Source: Anaerolineae bacterium (GTDB lineage Bacteria > Chloroflexota > Anaerolineae > DUEN01). Taken from it: a DNA stretch of 64,000 nt. Location: contig JANXBS010000011.1 in NCBI GenBank assembly GCA_025060615.1, positions 27,487 through 91,486 on the forward strand, in the 5' to 3' direction. Below are positions 2,056 to 13,927 of this stretch, in pieces. Each line of letters begins with the position of its first letter. The first letter of the stretch is position 1. The translations under genes and the position numbers were made by a program. The notes beneath the pieces are model-generated. The model was not told the origin of the DNA. It saw only the letters and a list, made by a program, of their open reading frames with translations, and ran no database searches.

Positions 2056-5000
2056 CTAAGTGATTTCTTCCAGTGCCCGCTCGATGGCATACAAATCACC
2101 GGCCAGGCGATTTACTGTACACCCCGCCTCGCGCAGCGCGCGTTCATCCTCAGCGCTGACCACCTCCTCGTTTCCGACGATGATCACCCGCGTCGCTCGC
2201 ATCGCCTCCCGCAGGCTAAAGCCAGCGACGGCGCGATGGGTCGCCAGGTATGGCTGTGCCAGCAAGATGGCCGTTCTGGTGTCGGCCGAATCGGCCGAGC
2301 CGAAGAGTAGATACAATGGCAACACTTTCTCCCCCTCTCCGGTCAGCCGGTAGACCAGACTGACCCGATTTCTGCCGTCGAGCGCTATCTCTCGGTGAAT
2401 GAAGCCTGTGCCCTCCAACGAGATGGCGTAGACGCCGGCGGACAAGCCCTGAAAGGTGTAACGTCCCTGCGCATCGGTGAGGGCTTGAGTTATGAGCTCG
2501 GTGCCGCGGTACAGCATCACGCGCAGAGCAGGGATGGGCGCTCCCGCTGCGCTCACAATCTGCCCCTCGACGGCGCTCTCCGCCGGCGCTCCGGCCGGCG
2601 CCAATACTACAGCCAACTCAGCGATCCCATCGAGGATGAGGTTTGAGCGGCTCAAGCCTAGGGCAGGTGCGCGTAGCTCATAAGTACCCGCCGACAGCCC
2701 GCCGAATGAGAAACGGCCCTCGCCGTCTGTAGTGGCCTCACCAATGAGCTGTCCGCTACGCCACAATTGCACGAGCACTCCCCTTTGCGGCGCTGCCGTG
2801 GTATCCAGCACTTGGCCGCGCAACACGCTCCGCGCGGTCCCGATAAGGTCTATTGCAGGGGCAGTGAAAGTCCCTAACCCATCGCAGACGGCCCTCACCC
2901 AATGTGTTGGATCCAGTTCGATCTCATACGGTGCGGCGGGGAGGTTGACAAATCGGTAGCCGCCTTGTGGGTTGATCTCGGCTTGGCGCTTCCAGCTCCA
3001 GCCTGGTACCAGCGGGCGTAGCGTCACTGTGGTCCCTGGCGGCGCACCGCGTACGATGCCCTGCAACACGCCTCTCATTGGGAAGAGTACCTCGACCTCA
3101 TTTTGGCCGTCCAAGTTGATGCCATCGCGGATGACGCCGATGCCTTCCAGCTCCAGGGCATATACCCCCCGTCTCAGGTCTCTGAAGCTGAAGCGCCTAT
3201 TTCCGTCCAAAGTGGTCGTCCAGCGTTGGCCGCTCCGGCTCTCTACCAAGAAGAGGCGGGCACCCTCGGTACCGCCCTGGATCTGACCGTGCACCACGCT
3301 TGCCTGGCCTGCGCTGTGAGGCCGGAGCTGAAAGTTGACCTCCCAGGTAATCGCCTGCCCCTCGCGGCCGGGGATGCCAGCCGTTTTTAGCCCGTCGGCG
3401 ATCTCGCTGGGCCAATCGCCCTGCACCACCTGAATCATGAACTCGCCAGGGGTATGCACGAACTCATATGAGCCGACGGGGCGGAAGGGGTCGTGTCCGG
3501 TGCGAACGCGTGGGAAGCGGGTGCCGGGGGCGGCCCCAATCCAGCGCATCTCCAGCATGATGCCGTTGACGCCCTTGCCAGAGGGGTCCAACACCCTTCC
3601 GTAGAAGGCTCGCCGGTTGCCTGTCTCCTCAGGGGGGAGCAAGCGCTTGGTGACAACGGCATAGATGTACCCCGGCGGCGCTGGCACGGTTACGTTCAGG
3701 GTGCGAGATTCGAACCCATCGAGAGCGATGCCATCTATGCGCACCTGTTGATCGCCTTCCGCTGCCTCCAGGCGGAAGTTGCCGGCGGGCAGGTTTTCCA
3801 ACCGATAGAAGCCATCTCGGTCTGTGGTCGTGCTGGCCATCAGGTCGCCCAACAACGTCAACAGTTTGACCGGTGTGTTGCCCAGCGGGGTGCCGCGCGT
3901 GTCCGTCACGCGTCCACTCAGAGAGCTGAAGCGGCCGGGGGGCACGCGCAGATCCACGGTGACCACAGCACGTTCGGCCACGTCAAGCCGTTGAGCCGTG
4001 CCACCGCGCCCGGCTACTAGTTCATACGAGCCGCCAGCCACCCGGTCAAACGCATAGGTACCGGCCTCATTGGTAACGGTTTGGCGCGATCGAGTAGGCG
4101 CGCGAAGTGGTCTCAGGAAAACTGGGAATTGCGGCACGGGCTGTTCGGTATCCTGACGTAGCACACGGCCGGTCACTGTAGCATCACCGCGGGGCATCAG
4201 ACGAGAGACGCTGGGCAAGTCTTTGAGTGCTTGAACCACCGGCAGTTGTCCGTTTAGGCCAAATCGTTGATCCCAAGCATGGGTATACCAGCTCATCTGG
4301 TCCCAGGCAGGGTTGAAATCGCCTAGCGGGCGGGAAGCTAACAGCCAGGTGCAACAGGTGAAATAGTAATCGGGTGCTTCCTCCTGGAAGAAGCGGCAGA
4401 TCTGCACTTGCCACTCAGCGTGTTGGGAGGGGATCACTTTCGGGTAGCGCTTGTCATCTCCCCAGCCCACGACAGGACCGCCCTCTGTGGAGATGATGGG
4501 GACCATGAACCCCAGCGCTTGCTCGATCATACGCGCTGTCCACAGGTAGCCGCGGAAGCAGTTAGGATCGTCATAGACTGTAGCGCCCGGGTTCTTGCGC
4601 TCAGCCCGCAACTGATTGATCATCTCCAGTGGCCGATTGTCCCAGGCCCATGCGCCGAAGCGATCGTATTCCTCCCGTGTCAGCGGCTTGCCAAGCTGGT
4701 TCACTTCGTCATCGGGATAGTCGAGAGGGTGGTTGAGCGTGTAATTGTGGATTGCCACCCAACAGCCGCGCTCGAATAGATCGGCTCGGCCTTTGCGCAC
4801 GATCAACTCGATGGGATTGTGCTTGCTACCAGGTCCCATAGCCGGCAGGGCGAGATAGCCGCCGGCATCTAGGACGCGATCGGCATCATAGATGAAATTA
4901 TCCACGACCACCTCTAGCCAGTTAGGGGGCATTCGCGTGCTCCACTCGGCGGGAAGATCCGGCTCGTTATTGGTCTCAAAATAGCGGACGCCGGCGGCGA

Positions 5001-8693: not shown

Positions 8694-8722
8694 TTGACAA
8701 AGCATCCTTTTCCGCTTATACT
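8694..8722 (+). promoter_or_regulatory. sigma-70 promoter for tRNA-Ala(CGC) and the T-box transcript
   Basis: A perfect -35 box TTGACA (8694-8699) and a -10 box TATACT (8717-8722) are separated by 17 bases, which predicts initiation near 8729, just before the tRNA at 8732. No comparably strong promoter is visible between the two tRNA genes, so this one may drive the whole tRNA-T-box-tRNA-ilvE unit. Confidence 0.85.
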
Positions 8723-8731
8723 TTGGAATGC

Positions 8732-8804
8732 GGGGCTGTAGCTCAGCTGGGAGAGCGCTTCAATCGCACTGAAGAGGTCAGGGGTTCGAATCCCCTCAGC
8801 TCCA
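8732..8804 (+). tRNA. tRNA-Ala (anticodon CGC)
   Basis: The 73-base cloverleaf is complete: acceptor GGGGCTG pairs with CAGCTCC, the D arm is GCTC/GAGC, the anticodon stem is CTTCA/TGAAG around a seven-base loop reading CGC at positions 34-36, and the T arm is AGGGG/CCCCT with TTCGAAT. The discriminator is A and the CCA end is not encoded. It reads the GCG alanine codon. It differs at only a few positions from the second tRNA-Ala 255 bases downstream, suggesting duplication. Confidence 0.95.
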
Positions 8805-8812
8805 TTCATTTG

Positions 8813-8862
8813 TCATCTGTGGCATAAAGTTGGGCTGACGCTGAACTTTATGCCACAGATGA
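8813..8862 (+). repeat. 19-bp perfect inverted repeat after tRNA-Ala(CGC)
   Basis: TCATCTGTGGCATAAAGTT (8813-8831) and its exact reverse complement (8844-8862) flank a 12-base loop. G-U and U-A pairs could extend the stem outward by two or three pairs. No U-tract follows, so it is not a standard intrinsic terminator. It lies between the tRNA and the T-box stem I region and could separate the two RNAs, for example as an RNase III-type processing site. Confidence 0.7.
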
Positions 8863-9058
8863 TAAGGGTACAGGCGACGAACAGGAGTAGTAAGCCAGCC
8901 TCGCAGCGAGCCGGGAGAGACCAGGTGGAAGCCCGGCGATGGCAGCATGGGGCCTGCCATAAGGCTGAACTCACCTGGGAGCCCTGGTCCTGAACTTTAG
9001 TAGGGATCGGCGGGAGCGCCCGTTAGCGCGTAACCAAGCGGTCGAAACGATCTGATGT

Positions 9059-9134
9059 GGGGCTGTAGCTCAGTTGGGAGAGCGCCTCAATGGCATTGAG
9101 GAGGTCAGGGGTTCGACTCCCCTCAGCTCCACCA
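9059..9134 (+). tRNA. tRNA-Ala (anticodon GGC), nested within the T-box leader
   Basis: The cloverleaf is complete: acceptor GGGGCTG/CAGCTCC, D arm GCTC/GAGC, anticodon stem CCTCA/TGAGG with a loop reading GGC, T arm AGGGG/CCCCT with TTCGACT, discriminator A and an encoded CCA (9132-9134). It reads the GCC and GCT codons. It has no promoter of its own that I can see and sits in the linker between the stem II region and the antiterminator of the ilvE T-box, so it is probably cut out of the leader transcript. Confidence 0.95.
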
Positions 9135-9170
9135 AAGTAATCGATTCGGCAAGCAGGGTGGTACCGCGGA

Positions 9171-9215
9171 GAACCCCTTCGTCCCTGAGAGGCGATGGGG
9201 TTTCTTCTTATTTTC
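9171..9215 (+). terminator. T-box intrinsic terminator upstream of ilvE
   Basis: GAACCCC (9171-9177) pairs with GGGG plus TTTC (9197-9204), and TCGTC (9179-9183) pairs with GGCGA (9191-9195) around a seven-base loop. The U-rich tract TTTCTTCTTATTTT follows. The left arm overlaps sequence needed for the antiterminator with the T-box at 9155-9169, so the two folds exclude each other. Confidence 0.8.
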
Positions 9216-9269
9216 ACCGATCCAGCAAAGCATACTTCTTCCCATGCCCGAAAACGAGGAGGAACCCCC

Positions 9270-10190
9270 ATGCCCATAAAAGAGTCGCAATGGATCTGGT
9301 TTGACGGCGAGTTCGTGCCCTGGGGCGAAGCGAAGGTTCACGTGCTGGCACACGCCCTGCACTATGGTAGCAGCGTCTTCGAGGGGATTCGCGCCTATGA
9401 GACCCCTCAGGGAACGGCGATCTTTCGGCTCGAGCCACATGTAACCCGGCTGTTCAACTCAGCCAAGATCGCCCGTATGCCCGTTCCCTTCACGCCGGAA
9501 CAAGTGACCAAGGCGATTGCCGAGACGGTGCGCCGCAACAACTTGCGTGCTTGCTATATCCGGCCGTTGATTTTCCGCGGCTATGAAGTTTTGGGGGTAG
9601 ATCCCCGTCAGTGTCCGGTGCACACCGTCATCGCTGCCTTCGAGTGGGGTGCCTATCTCGGCTCGGAGGCTCTAGAGCAAGGGGTAGATGTAGGCGTGAG
9701 TTCGTGGCGGCGGATGGCCCCTGATACCTTCCCGGCTATGGCCAAAATCGGCGGTGATTATGTTAATTCACAGTTCATGGTCATGGAGGCGCGCGATCGC
9801 GGCTTCGTCGAGGCCATTGCGCTGGACGTTTACGGCTACGTGTCCGAGGGAAGCGGTGAGAACGTGTTCGTGGTCCAGAACGGCATCATTTATACACCCC
9901 CTTTGGGTGCTTCCATCCTGGGCGGCATCACGCGTGACAGCGCCATTACGATTGCCCGCGACCTGGGGTATGAAGTCCGCGAGCAGTTGATCCCGCGCGA
10001 GATGCTGTACATTGCCGATGAGTTGTTCTTCACCGGCACCGCTGCGGAGATTACACCGATTCGATCGGTAGATGGCCAGATGATCGGCAAGGGATGCCGC
10101 GGTCCCATCACAGCGCGCATCCAGGAGCAATTCTTCGGCATTACCCAAGGTAAGCTCCCTGACCGTTACGGCTGGCTGTATTACGTTTAG
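9270..10190 (+). CDS. ilvE: branched-chain amino acid aminotransferase
   Basis: The enzyme performs the last step of Leu, Ile and Val synthesis, moving an amino group from glutamate to the branched 2-oxo acid with PLP. The 306-residue length is typical. Class IV aminotransferase signatures are present: [16 protein letters not shown] near the N-terminus, the PLP lysine in [21 protein letters not shown] for phosphate binding, and [14 protein letters not shown] near the C-terminus. The start ATG at 9270 has a GAGGAGGA site six bases upstream; an in-frame ATG at 9195 lies inside the terminator and is rejected. Expression is predicted to be controlled by the T-box leader. The cupin, membrane protein and leuS genes follow on the same strand. 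Confidence 0.95.
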
Positions 10191-11015: not shown

Positions 11016-11077
11016 AGAAACCCCTGTTGGACAAGCTTTGCTTCCAAGGGTATGTTTCGGGTTCAAGGAGTAGACGA

Positions 11078-13927
11078 ATGAGCGATCGTTATATACCTCA
11101 GGAAATCGAGCCCAAGTGGCAAAGGAAGTGGGAGGAGGATGGGCTATATCGCACTGTTGAAGATCCTCATCGGCCTAAGTGGTACTTCCTGACGATGTTG
11201 CCCTACCCCAGCGGCGATCTCCACATCGGCCACTGGTACGCAATGACGCCATCCGATGCGGCTGCCCGGTACAAGCGCATGCAGGGCTACAACGTGTTCT
11301 TCCCGATTGGCTTTGACGCCTTCGGGCTCCCAGCCGAGAACGCCGCCATCAGGCATGGCATTCACCCGGCTCAATGGACGTATCAGAACATTGAGCGCAT
11401 GCGCCGGCAGTTGCGGTCCATGGGCGCGATGTGGGCCTGGGACCGCGAGGCCATCACCTGTGACCCGCGCTATTACCGATGGACCCAGTGGTTCTTCCTG
11501 AAGCTATATGACCACGGGCTGGCCTATCGCAAATTCGCGCCAGTGGACTTCTGCCCGACCTGCAACACGACTCTAGCCCGTGAGCAAGTGTGGGGCGAAG
11601 ACCGGCACTGCGAGCGTTGTGGGACGCCGGTGATCAAGAAAGAGCTGGAACAGTGGTTCTTCAGGATCACCCAATACGCCGAGGAGCTACTGGATTTCTC
11701 CAAGATTGACTGGCCTGAGCGGGTCAGAGTGATGCAGACCAACTGGATCGGCCGCAGCGAGGGCGCCGAAGTGACCTTCCAGGTCGCACCTGAGTATCTA
11801 CCCCCTAACGCCGGCCCCGGTGCGGGCGATATCGTAGTCTTCACGACCCGCCCGGATACCCTCTGGGGAGCCACGTTCATGGTGCTGGCGCCAGAGCATC
11901 CGCTGGTCAACCAGATCACAACCCCCGAGCACCGGGACGAAGTGGAAGCCTACAGGCAGCAGACCGCACGCCTAGATGAGATCACCCGCACTTCGACTGT
12001 GAAGGAGAAGACCGGCGTCTTCACCGGCGCGTACGCGATCAACCCAGTCAATGGCCGGCGTATCCCCATCTGGATCGCCGATTACGTCCTGATGAGTTAT
12101 GGCACCGGTGCCATTATGGCGGTGCCAGCCCATGACGAGCGCGACTTCGAGTTCGCGCTGAAGTTTGGACTGCCCATTATCCCCGTTATCGAGCGGCCTG
12201 ATGGCCGCGCCAAGAGTGTGGTCTGGGAGGGCTCCGTCGCTGAGGGATTCGGCGCGGCATTGGACGCGGCGGGCATCCCCCACCAGCCGCTGACTATCGA
12301 GGGCCGCGGGCAATTCTTCGCGGTCACGCTGAGCGACGACGCCAGCATTGAGACCTATAGGGCGATCCTGCAGGCTCATTTGAAGCCTGGCCACTGGGCC
12401 GACATCGTGGGGCGGGGCTGGCAGGTGGTGTTCGACGACGCGCCGATCGTCCTGGATTCGCCGGAGGCTGATGCCGCCATTATGGCGCGCTGCCATGCGG
12501 GCTATGCCTATATGCGACGGTTCCGCACCGCCATGGAGATGTGGCACGCCGTCGAGTGGTATCGGGATGTGCTCTTCCACGACGAGTACGGCACCATGAT
12601 CCACTCCGGGCCGTTCAGCGGCACACCAGGTGATGTCGCCAAGCGAAAGGTTACTGAGTGGCTCGAAGCACAGGGCATCGGCAAGTTCGCCATCAACTAC
12701 CGCCTGCGCGACTGGCTGATCAGCCGGCAGCGCATGTGGGGCGCGCCGATTCCCATCATTTACTGCCCGCACTGCGGCACGGTCCCTGTGCCGTATAAGG
12801 ACCTGCCGGTGCTGTTACCCGATGACGCCGAGTTCCTGCCCACCGGCGAAAGCCCGCTGAAGTACCATGAAGGGTTCCGCTATGTGAAGTGTCCGCGCTG
12901 TGGCAGCGACGCTGAGCGGGAGACCGACACAATGGACACCTTCGTGTGCTCCTCATGGTACCAATATGCCTACGTCAGCCCGTATTGGAAAGCGGGCGAG
13001 CCTATTGGCCCGGACGATACGCCGTTCGACCCAGAGAAAGGGGCCTACTGGCTGCCGGTGGATCAGTACACTGGCGGCGTGGAACACGCCACCATGCACT
13101 TGCTGTACACCCGCTTCTTCACCAAGGCGATGCGGGACATGGGCATTGTCAACTTCGACGAGCCGATGCTGCGCCTGTTCAACCAGGGCACCATCCTAGG
13201 TGAGGATGGCGAGAAGATGTCTAAATCTCGCGGCAATGTGGTTGCGCCGGACGATCTGGTCGAGCGCTATGGGGCCGATACGGTGCGTGTCTACCTGATG
13301 TTCATCGGCCCATGGGAACAGGGCGGCCCCTGGAGTTCGCAGGGGATTGAGGGGGTGCGCCGGTTCCTGGATCGAGTGTGGACGGTGGTAGTGGAACCGC
13401 CGGCCCGTCTCGCCCAAGGCGAACCGTCCGAAGCGGAAGTGCGCGCGTTGCGCCGAATGACCCATCAGACCATCCGTCGCGTCACCAACGACATCGAGCA
13501 TTTCAAGTTCAACACGATGATTGCAGCGTTGATGGAGTTCAACAACTACCTGATGAAAGCCCGCGAGACGGCCGTGTATGGCACGCCGGCTTGGGAGGAG
13601 GCGGTGGATAGCTTATTGCTAATGCTGGCTCCATCGGCGCCGCACATCAGCGAAGAGCTATGGCAGCGGCGACATTCCGGTCCCAGCGTGCATGTGCAAT
13701 CCTGGCCGACCTGGGACGAGGAGCTGGCCCGTGCGGAGACCATCACGCTGGTTGTTCAGGTCAACGGCAAGGTGCGGGATCGCATCGAGGTGCCGGCAGG
13801 CATCACGGAGGAACAGGCTAAAGAGTTGGCTTTGGCCTCCCCCGGCGCGCGGCGACACCTGAACGGCAGACAGGTGGTGAAGGTCGTCTATGCACCGGGG
13901 CGGCTAGTGAACATCGTCGTGCGATAG
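11078..13927 (+). CDS. leuS: leucyl-tRNA synthetase
   Basis: This class I synthetase charges tRNA-Leu. The HIGH-type motif reads PSGDLHIGHWYAM near residue 45-55 and the KMSKS loop reads GEKMSKSRGNVVAPDD. A CP1 editing domain lies between, with the TRPDTLWGATFMVLAPEHPLV threonine-rich region and VPAHDERDFEFALKFGLPI. Zinc-type Cys pairs (CPTCNTTLAREQVW, CPHCGTVPVP, CPRCGSD) are visible. The 949 residues are somewhat longer than many bacterial LeuRS (about 820-880), partly from an insert in the editing region. The ATG at 11078 has a CAAGGAG site; an upstream in-frame ATG at 11027 only adds a non-conserved tail. It may share the Leu-responsive T-box transcript that starts upstream of ilvE. Confidence 0.95.
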   Translation: MSDRYIPQEIEPKWQRKWEEDGLYRTVEDPHRPKWYFLTMLPYPSGDLHIGHWYAMTPSDAAARYKRMQGYNVFFPIGFDAFGLPAENAAIRHGIHPAQWTYQNIERMRRQLRSMGAMWAWDREAITCDPRYYRWTQWFFLKLYDHGLAYRKFAPVDFCPTCNTTLAREQVWGEDRHCERCGTPVIKKELEQWFFRITQYAEELLDFSKIDWPERVRVMQTNWIGRSEGAEVTFQVAPEYLPPNAGPGAGDIVVFTTRPDTLWGATFMVLAPEHPLVNQITTPEHRDEVEAYRQQTARLDEITRTSTVKEKTGVFTGAYAINPVNGRRIPIWIADYVLMSYGTGAIMAVPAHDERDFEFALKFGLPIIPVIERPDGRAKSVVWEGSVAEGFGAALDAAGIPHQPLTIEGRGQFFAVTLSDDASIETYRAILQAHLKPGHWADIVGRGWQVVFDDAPIVLDSPEADAAIMARCHAGYAYMRRFRTAMEMWHAVEWYRDVLFHDEYGTMIHSGPFSGTPGDVAKRKVTEWLEAQGIGKFAINYRLRDWLISRQRMWGAPIPIIYCPHCGTVPVPYKDLPVLLPDDAEFLPTGESPLKYHEGFRYVKCPRCGSDAERETDTMDTFVCSSWYQYAYVSPYWKAGEPIGPDDTPFDPEKGAYWLPVDQYTGGVEHATMHLLYTRFFTKAMRDMGIVNFDEPMLRLFNQGTILGEDGEKMSKSRGNVVAPDDLVERYGADTVRVYLMFIGPWEQGGPWSSQGIEGVRRFLDRVWTVVVEPPARLAQGEPSEAEVRALRRMTHQTIRRVTNDIEHFKFNTMIAALMEFNNYLMKARETAVYGTPAWEEAVDSLLLMLAPSAPHISEELWQRRHSGPSVHVQSWPTWDEELARAETITLVVQVNGKVRDRIEVPAGITEEQAKELALASPGARRHLNGRQVVKVVYAPGRLVNIVVR

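What the first reader, a model, noticed from the sequence alone, without database searches (positions are those of the whole stretch)
8870..9220. A tRNA-Ala gene sits inside the T-box riboswitch that controls ilvE
A canonical T-box leader (stem I motifs, stem II block, AGGGTGGTACCGCGG, terminator) precedes ilvE, but a complete tRNA-Ala(GGC) with encoded CCA occupies 9059-9134 between stem II and the antiterminator. Removing the tRNA leaves a linker of about 46 bases, a normal length, so the tRNA looks inserted into a working T-box. RNase P and Z processing would cut sensor from switch. Either regulation is settled before processing, or the tRNA replaces stem III as a structural element, or the riboswitch yields a tRNA only when transcription goes through. 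I know of no T-box arranged this way.
Basis: partly seen in the sequence, partly recalled or inferred. Interest (0 to 1): 0.85.

Follow-up and report, generated by a model that had tools for sequence, protein, structure and literature searches.

The report
tRNA-Ala gene inside a T-box
In many bacteria an alanine tRNA gene sits in the tip of one hairpin of a leucine-sensing RNA switch, so one transcript appears to give both a tRNA and a controlled message for leucine genes.

Summary
tRNA-Ala(GGC) (9059-9134) lies inside a T-box leader (8868-9189; RF00230 79.2 bits with a 96-nt insert). It occupies the loop of stem III. [quoted passage not shown] Of 60 genomes (window's own included, spread over its class) 27 have the nesting, 15 have the tRNA just upstream of an uninterrupted T-box. 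Across 129 distinct loci the specifier is CUC (Leu) in 122, G3:U70 and A73 are invariant, and stem III covaries. One sigma-70-type promoter upstream of a first tRNA-Ala(CGC) seems to drive the whole unit. Best reading: the T-box terminator is the regulated terminator of a tRNA-Ala operon. The tRNA is made whatever the switch decides; leuS/ilvE follow only when tRNA-Leu is uncharged. The fate of the RNA after tRNA processing is untested. No paper describing it was found in the open-access library searched.

The parts
8694..8722 (+). sigma-70-type promoter TTGACA-17-TATACT (11 of 12)
   Evidence: the same kind of promoter stands upstream of tRNA-Ala(CGC) in 24 of 26 distinct nested loci with that gene, the two misses being contig ends
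8732..8804 (+). tRNA-Ala(CGC), first gene of the unit, no encoded CCA
8813..8862 (+). 19-bp perfect hairpin (arms 8813-8831 and 8844-8862) between the first tRNA and the T-box; no T-run follows
   Evidence: read; a like hairpin is seen in L009, L010, L012
8868..9189 (+). T-box leader RF00230, full model 1-219
8970..8972 (+). specifier CUC (Leu), in GAA-CUC-A
   Evidence: with the Rfam alignment; AACTC[AG] in 122 of 129 loci
9036..9040 (+). AAGCG = RRRxG element 5' of stem III
   Evidence: motif definition from passages of PMC7583486
9041..9051 (+). stem III, 5' strand
   Evidence: fold; covariation
9059..9134 (+). tRNA-Ala(GGC) with encoded CCA, in the loop of stem III; the only GGC copy found in the assembly
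9140..9150 (+). stem III, 3' strand, followed by AA at 9151-9152
   Evidence: AA at this spot in 122 of 128 loci
9155..9186 (+). antiterminator with T-box bulge (AGGGTGGTACCGCG)
   Evidence: -9.0 kcal/mol
9168..9207 (+). terminator hairpin, U-rich tail after it; shares TTCGTCCCT with the antiterminator
   Evidence: -20.9 kcal/mol
9270..10190 (+). ilvE (TIGR01122), start at ATG 9270 inferred from a GAGGAGG site
11027..13927 (+). leuS (TIGR00396), the usual gene after this T-box in other taxa

Best explanation
This is a leucine-responsive transcriptional T-box riboswitch that also serves as the precursor of tRNA-Ala(GGC). The promoter upstream of tRNA-Ala(CGC) transcribes tRNA-Ala(CGC), stem I/II of the T-box, then stem III with the tRNA-Ala(GGC) cloverleaf as its cap, then the antiterminator/terminator. 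Because both tRNAs lie before the terminator, they are made whether or not the polymerase goes on; the T-box terminator is the regulated end of a tRNA operon. Uncharged tRNA-Leu bound to specifier CUC and the UGGU bulge lets transcription go on into ilvE and leuS. RNase P and 3' processing then cut out the tRNA; the paired stem III would hold the two T-box halves together, or processing simply comes too late to matter. Shown by sequence: anatomy, conservation, covariation, promoter placement. Inferred: transcription as one unit, tRNA release, leucine response. Guess: the splint role of stem III after processing.
For: T-box across the tRNA. Fold of 9030-9157: stem III capped by an intact cloverleaf, -49.4 kcal/mol, z -2.7, 3 of 200 shuffles as low. 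Stem III pairing in 128 distinct loci with enough upstream sequence: all 6 outer pairs in 63, at least 4 of 6 in 106, 91 different stems; with 3' strands swapped between loci 6 of 6 in 6% and at least 5 of 6 in 24.5%, against 70% (90 of 128) native. Pair 3 is C-G 49, U-A 45; pair 2 A-U 42, G-C 31, U-A 13. AA after stem III in 122 of 128. Functional tRNA: G3:U70 and A73 in 129 of 129, acceptor stem 7 of 7 in 127. Specifier AACTC[AG] in 122 of 129. One promoter, upstream of the first tRNA, in 24 of 26 distinct nested loci, and none of at least 9 of 12 between that tRNA and stem I in the 26. Sole GGC gene in the assembly. leuS or ilvE downstream.
Against: No RNA data. Window score below the Rfam gathering score. 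tRNA-Leu(GAG), the partner of CUC, was not among the 45 tRNAs of the assembly, though Ile(GAT) is missing too and a single-contig relative has Leu(GAG). In 22 of 128 loci fewer than 4 of 6 outer stem III pairs were found by the anchored test; Ktedonobacteria seem shifted by two bases, others are unexplained. An early test with unanchored duplex energies did not separate native from swapped pairs well (native best of about 25 swaps in 10 of 128). Two relatives with the tandem layout have a promoter of their own before the T-box, so one-unit transcription is not universal in the group.
Confidence: 0.8

Rival explanations
1. Stem III gates tRNA maturation: when stem III is paired right up to the acceptor stem, RNase P and 3' enzymes are hindered, so the state of the T-box also sets how much tRNA-Ala(GGC) matures.
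For: Stem III ends only a few nt from the tRNA 5' end in many printed examples; leader-trailer pairing is known to affect pre-tRNA processing (recalled, no call).
Against: Nothing shows processing; spacing varies widely (10-84 nt from tRNA end to GGGTGG).
Confidence: 0.12
2. The nested tRNA-Ala is itself an effector in cis, its ACCA end competing for the UGGU bulge or coupling alanine charging to leuS.
For: A73-CCA is complementary to the UGGU bulge, as tRNA-Leu's end would be (inference); the guest is tRNA-Ala in all true hits.
Against: The specifier is CUC, not an Ala codon, in 122 of 129; CCA is encoded in only 83 of 129 and is not a free 3' end before processing.
Confidence: 0.08
3. A historical accident with no functional link: the tRNA once fell into a tolerant loop and is stuck there because it is the only GGC gene; both parts work independently. 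(This differs from the best explanation only in denying any benefit of the coupling.)
For: Single copy in the window's assembly; 15 of 60 relatives do without the nesting, so it is not needed for either function.
Against: Retention across several phyla and both sides of a LeuS tree; two Ktedonobacteria keep it although a second GGC gene exists.
Confidence: 0.35
4. A decayed T-box overrun by a tRNA.
For: Window score below the gathering score.
Against: Specifier, purine string, bulge, terminator and covarying stem III are conserved; several nested examples exceed the gathering score.
Confidence: 0.03

Closest known systems
Transcriptional T-box riboswitch, leucine class (RF00230; leuS/ilv-leu leaders)
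   Same: Stem I with CUC specifier, stem II and IIA/B, RRRxG-stem III-AA, UGGN bulge, antiterminator/terminator, leuS or ilvE downstream
   Different: A whole tRNA-Ala(GGC) gene forms the cap of stem III; the leader is also a tRNA precursor and, in the window's class, sits behind a tRNA promoter
tRNA genes in mixed operons with protein genes (general knowledge, no call)
   Same: tRNA excised from a longer transcript that also carries a protein gene
   Different: Here the tRNA is inside the discriminator of a riboswitch and not beside it
Tandem layout tRNA-Ala(CGC)-tRNA-Ala(GGC)-T-box-leuS of relatives
   Same: Same genes and, mostly, same promoter position
   Different: Stem III is an ordinary hairpin and the tRNA lies upstream (e.g. 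L028, L038, L048)

Membership tests
T-box riboswitch (RF00230) | Stem I with specifier followed by a purine | tested here: met
   GAA-CUC-A at 8967-8973; 122 of 129 loci
T-box riboswitch (RF00230) | T-box bulge UGGN in an antiterminator that excludes a terminator | tested here: met
   AGGGTGGTACCGCG; folds of both
T-box riboswitch (RF00230) | 5'-RRRxG-stem III-AA-3' discriminator motif | tested here: met
   AAGCG-stem III-AA in the window; AA in 122 of 128, stem III covaries
T-box riboswitch (RF00230) | Rfam gathering score of 93 bits (a curation threshold, not a structural feature) | tested here: inconclusive
   Window 79.2, insert included; 0 of 27 class loci but 4 of 8 distant nested loci above; uninterrupted T-boxes of the same class also fall short (86.5, 80.8)
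T-box riboswitch (RF00230) | Response to uncharged tRNA-Leu | not testable with these tools
   needs in vitro transcription or reporters
T-box riboswitch (RF00230) | Cognate tRNA-Leu(GAG) in the same genome | tested here: inconclusive
   absent among 45 tRNAs of the window's draft assembly, Ile(GAT) missing too; present in the single-contig relative G029
tRNA-Ala(GGC) | Cloverleaf, anticodon GGC, G3:U70, A73 | tested here: met
tRNA-Ala(GGC) | Processed to a mature, charged tRNA | not testable with these tools
   no RNA data

The most novel reading that the evidence does not exclude
A phylum-spanning class of two-function leaders in which the terminated (OFF) product of a riboswitch is not waste but a tRNA precursor, and in which an antitermination switch works, at least part of the time, as two RNA pieces held by the stem III helix after the tRNA has been cut out of it.
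Probability: 0.35. Interest if true: 0.92.

Novelty: new variant of a known kind. Interest (0 to 1): 0.82.

Why it matters
It shows that the stem III loop of a T-box can carry a complete 76-nt structured RNA without losing the discriminator motif, which fits the view that stem III is a fixed part of the sensor while its stem and loop vary (passages of PMC7583486). It couples supply of a tRNA-Ala to the transcription unit of LeuRS, would make the short terminated product useful, and poses a direct test of whether a riboswitch can act while RNase P cuts through its middle. It also gives a natural scaffold for tRNA-capped T-boxes in structural work, and a warning for annotation: all 27 nested class loci examined stay below the Rfam gathering score.

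Tried and rejected
Unanchored duplex energies of the flanks were confounded by long 3' spacers that pair with anything; replaced by the anchored test, with the same selection applied to the swaps. Patterns for tRNA-Leu(GAG) were too strict: they missed the GAG gene of G029 that searches found; one search used a mis-designed pattern and is void. A BLAST for Leu(GAG) brought mostly other Leu tRNAs and was inconclusive. The LeuS tree cannot be rooted and rests on a sample chosen for nesting, so the number of gains and losses is not claimed. 'Chance overlap', 'tRNA made only on read-through' and 'Ala-specific T-box' were rejected on order of parts and specifier. The literature searches found no description; the library lacks most subscription journals, so older T-box surveys may mention it. 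Bacilli were not surveyed on their own: I held no genome of that class to use as a centre.

Full report
WHAT IS THERE. The window holds, on the + strand, a near-consensus promoter TTGACA-17-TATACT at 8694-8722, tRNA-Ala(CGC) at 8732-8804, and tRNA-Ala(GGC) with encoded CCA at 9059-9134. Infernal against Rfam gives one T-box match from 8868 to 9189 covering the whole model, 79.2 bits, E 3.5e-17, with 96 nt of insert at stem III; the gathering score is 93. Downstream are ilvE (TIGR01122) and, after two small ORFs, leuS (TIGR00396). The terminator hairpin is 9168-9207 and shares TTCGTCCCT with the antiterminator.

WHERE EXACTLY THE tRNA SITS. [quoted passage not shown] In the window AAGCG (9036-9040) is followed by stem III 9041-9051/9140-9150 and AA (9151-9152). 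The minimum-energy fold of 9030-9157 is stem III with one A.A mismatch, capped by the complete cloverleaf: -49.4 kcal/mol against -39.1 +/- 3.8 for shuffles. The tRNA therefore replaces only the loop of stem III.

RELATIVES. I searched the leader in 60 genomes, the window's own included, most from different families of its class, and read the loci with ARAGORN and Rfam. Of 60: 27 nested (19 families by the tool's codes), 15 with tRNA-Ala(GGC) just upstream of an uninterrupted T-box with an ordinary stem III, 1 with T-box and tRNA pair apart, 10 with the tRNA pair and no T-box found nearby, 4 with the two tRNAs apart or only one seen, 1 cut by a contig end, and 2 with a weak match or none, not fetched. 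All 27 nested guests are tRNA-Ala(GGC).

OTHER PHYLA. By ARAGORN 109 are tRNA-Ala(GGC), two more (L120, L221) are the same but not called, being cut by a locus end (read by eye), one is tRNA-Ala(CGC) (L184, below), and eight are not this thing: three without a tRNA (L109, L110, L114) and tRNA-Arg, Arg, Thr, Glu, Arg in L140, L158, L186, L194, L213. By record titles the carriers are Bacillota (Syntrophomonas, Thermosyntropha, Desulfofundulus, Desulfotruncus and others), Chloroflexota with Ktedonobacteria and Thermomicrobia, Coprothermobacterota, Caldisericota, Atribacterota and Armatimonadota; single records labelled Proteobacteria and Desulfovibrio may be misbinned. The same pattern hits 43 of 400 genomes drawn from the window's phylum and 31 of 249 from the phylum of Syntrophomonas; exact-match patterns make these lower bounds, and I did not run ARAGORN on these hits. 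The gene after the T-box is leuS in most loci and ilvE in others (leuS by reading translations and by BLAST); in Desulfofundulus, Desulfotruncus and Desulfallas the first long ORF looked to me like an acyl-CoA synthetase, not checked. Of 30 leuS loci in Bacillota that were fetched, out of 79 genomes with a match among 81, 5 are nested, one has the tRNA without a T-box motif found, 13 have a T-box motif without a tRNA, and 11 show neither in the stretch available.

CONSERVATION. I pooled the 27 class loci, 2 duplicate fetches and the 109 ARAGORN-called scan loci (138) and removed 9 duplicates: 129. Specifier AACTC[AG] in 122; 6 others differ, 1 lacks upstream sequence (the fuzzy pattern may have picked a wrong site in some). 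G3:U70 and A73 in 129 of 129, acceptor stem fully paired in 127, encoded CCA in 83, a run of four T within 130 nt after the T-box in 114. For 128 loci with enough upstream sequence, AA stands exactly 5 nt before GGGTGG in 122; the six outermost stem III pairs are all formed in 63, at least five in 90, at least four in 106, with 91 different stems. With 3' strands exchanged between loci and the same best-of choice, six pairs form in 6% and at least five in 24.5%. Single pairs change on both sides: pair 3 C-G 49 / U-A 45, pair 2 A-U 42 / G-C 31 / U-A 13 among the 106 (choosing loci with at least four pairs leans towards pairing). An earlier unanchored energy test failed to separate native from swapped. 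Twenty-two of 128 score under four; five Ktedonobacteria among them seem to have a stem shifted by two bases, the rest I did not resolve.

TRANSCRIPTION. Among distinct nested loci of the class with an upstream tRNA-Ala(CGC) (26), a promoter of at least 10 of 12 lies within 80 nt before that tRNA in 24; the other two are contig ends. None has one of at least 9 of 12 between that tRNA and stem I, nor a run of four T there. In 15 tandem loci the T-box has its own such promoter in two, L048 and L069. So in the nested layout of this class one promoter appears to serve both tRNAs, the T-box and the genes after it. As the terminator follows the second tRNA, the tRNA must be transcribed on both branches.

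COPY NUMBER AND PARTNER. The draft assembly (97.8% complete) has 45 tRNAs by RF00005; Ala anticodons are CGC, GGC and TGC, once each, the nested GGC being the only one. Leu(GAG), partner of CUC, was not found, nor was Ile(GAT). In the single-contig relative G029 47 tRNAs were read: Leu(GAG) is there, and each Ala isoacceptor once. The gap in the window's genome is thus likely one of assembly, but this is not shown. Two Ktedonobacteria have a second GGC gene elsewhere.

HISTORY. A LeuS tree of 143 rows from these loci has nested loci on both the Bacillota and the Chloroflexota side, and tandem and bare loci scattered among nested ones in the window's class; the nested label needs 17 changes (shuffled mean 23.0, 0 of 500 as low). 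The sample was chosen for nesting and the tree is unrooted, so I conclude only that the state is old or was passed on with leuS, and that it has changed repeatedly. L184 looks like a fossil: promoter, tRNA-Ala(CGC), then directly the antiterminator half without stem I, as recombination between the two Ala tRNAs would leave.

NOVELTY. Ten searches of the open-access library found no report of a tRNA gene inside a T-box (listings seen). I read passages, not whole texts, of PMC2494555, PMC7583486 and PMC7778990: the first two have no occurrence of 'tRNA gene', the third has three, one on pairing T-boxes with tRNAs and the others in its reference list; [quoted passage not shown] Subscription papers were not seen.

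Noticed in passing
L184, tRNA at 3542-3615 (oriented as): Fossil arrangement: promoter, tRNA-Ala(CGC), then only the antiterminator/terminator half of a T-box, no stem I; suggests recombination between the two Ala tRNAs.
   Followed up: partly
8813-8862: Perfect 19-bp hairpin without T-run between tRNA-Ala(CGC) and the T-box, with like hairpins in three genomes of the same family (L009, L010, L012).
   Followed up: no
L108, L116, L153: In Desulfotruncus, Desulfofundulus and Desulfallas the first long ORF after the nested T-box looks like an acyl-CoA synthetase instead of leuS (reading of the translation only).
   Followed up: no
own genome, loci L001-L006: Six further T-boxes, none with a tRNA called within the fetched stretch, before ORFs that read like valS, serS, trpE, trpB, thrS and pheS (my reading of the translations).
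   Followed up: partly
L126, L144, L147, L155, L162, L175, L200: Nested T-boxes in Coprothermobacterota, Caldisericota, Atribacterota and Armatimonadota records, phyla not in the T-box table of PMC2494555 as far as the passage seen shows.
   Followed up: no
own genome tRNA set: tRNA-Leu(GAG) and tRNA-Ile(GAT) not found in the 73-contig assembly.
   Followed up: partly
L016: About 100 nt of extra sequence inside stem I of a nested T-box.
   Followed up: no
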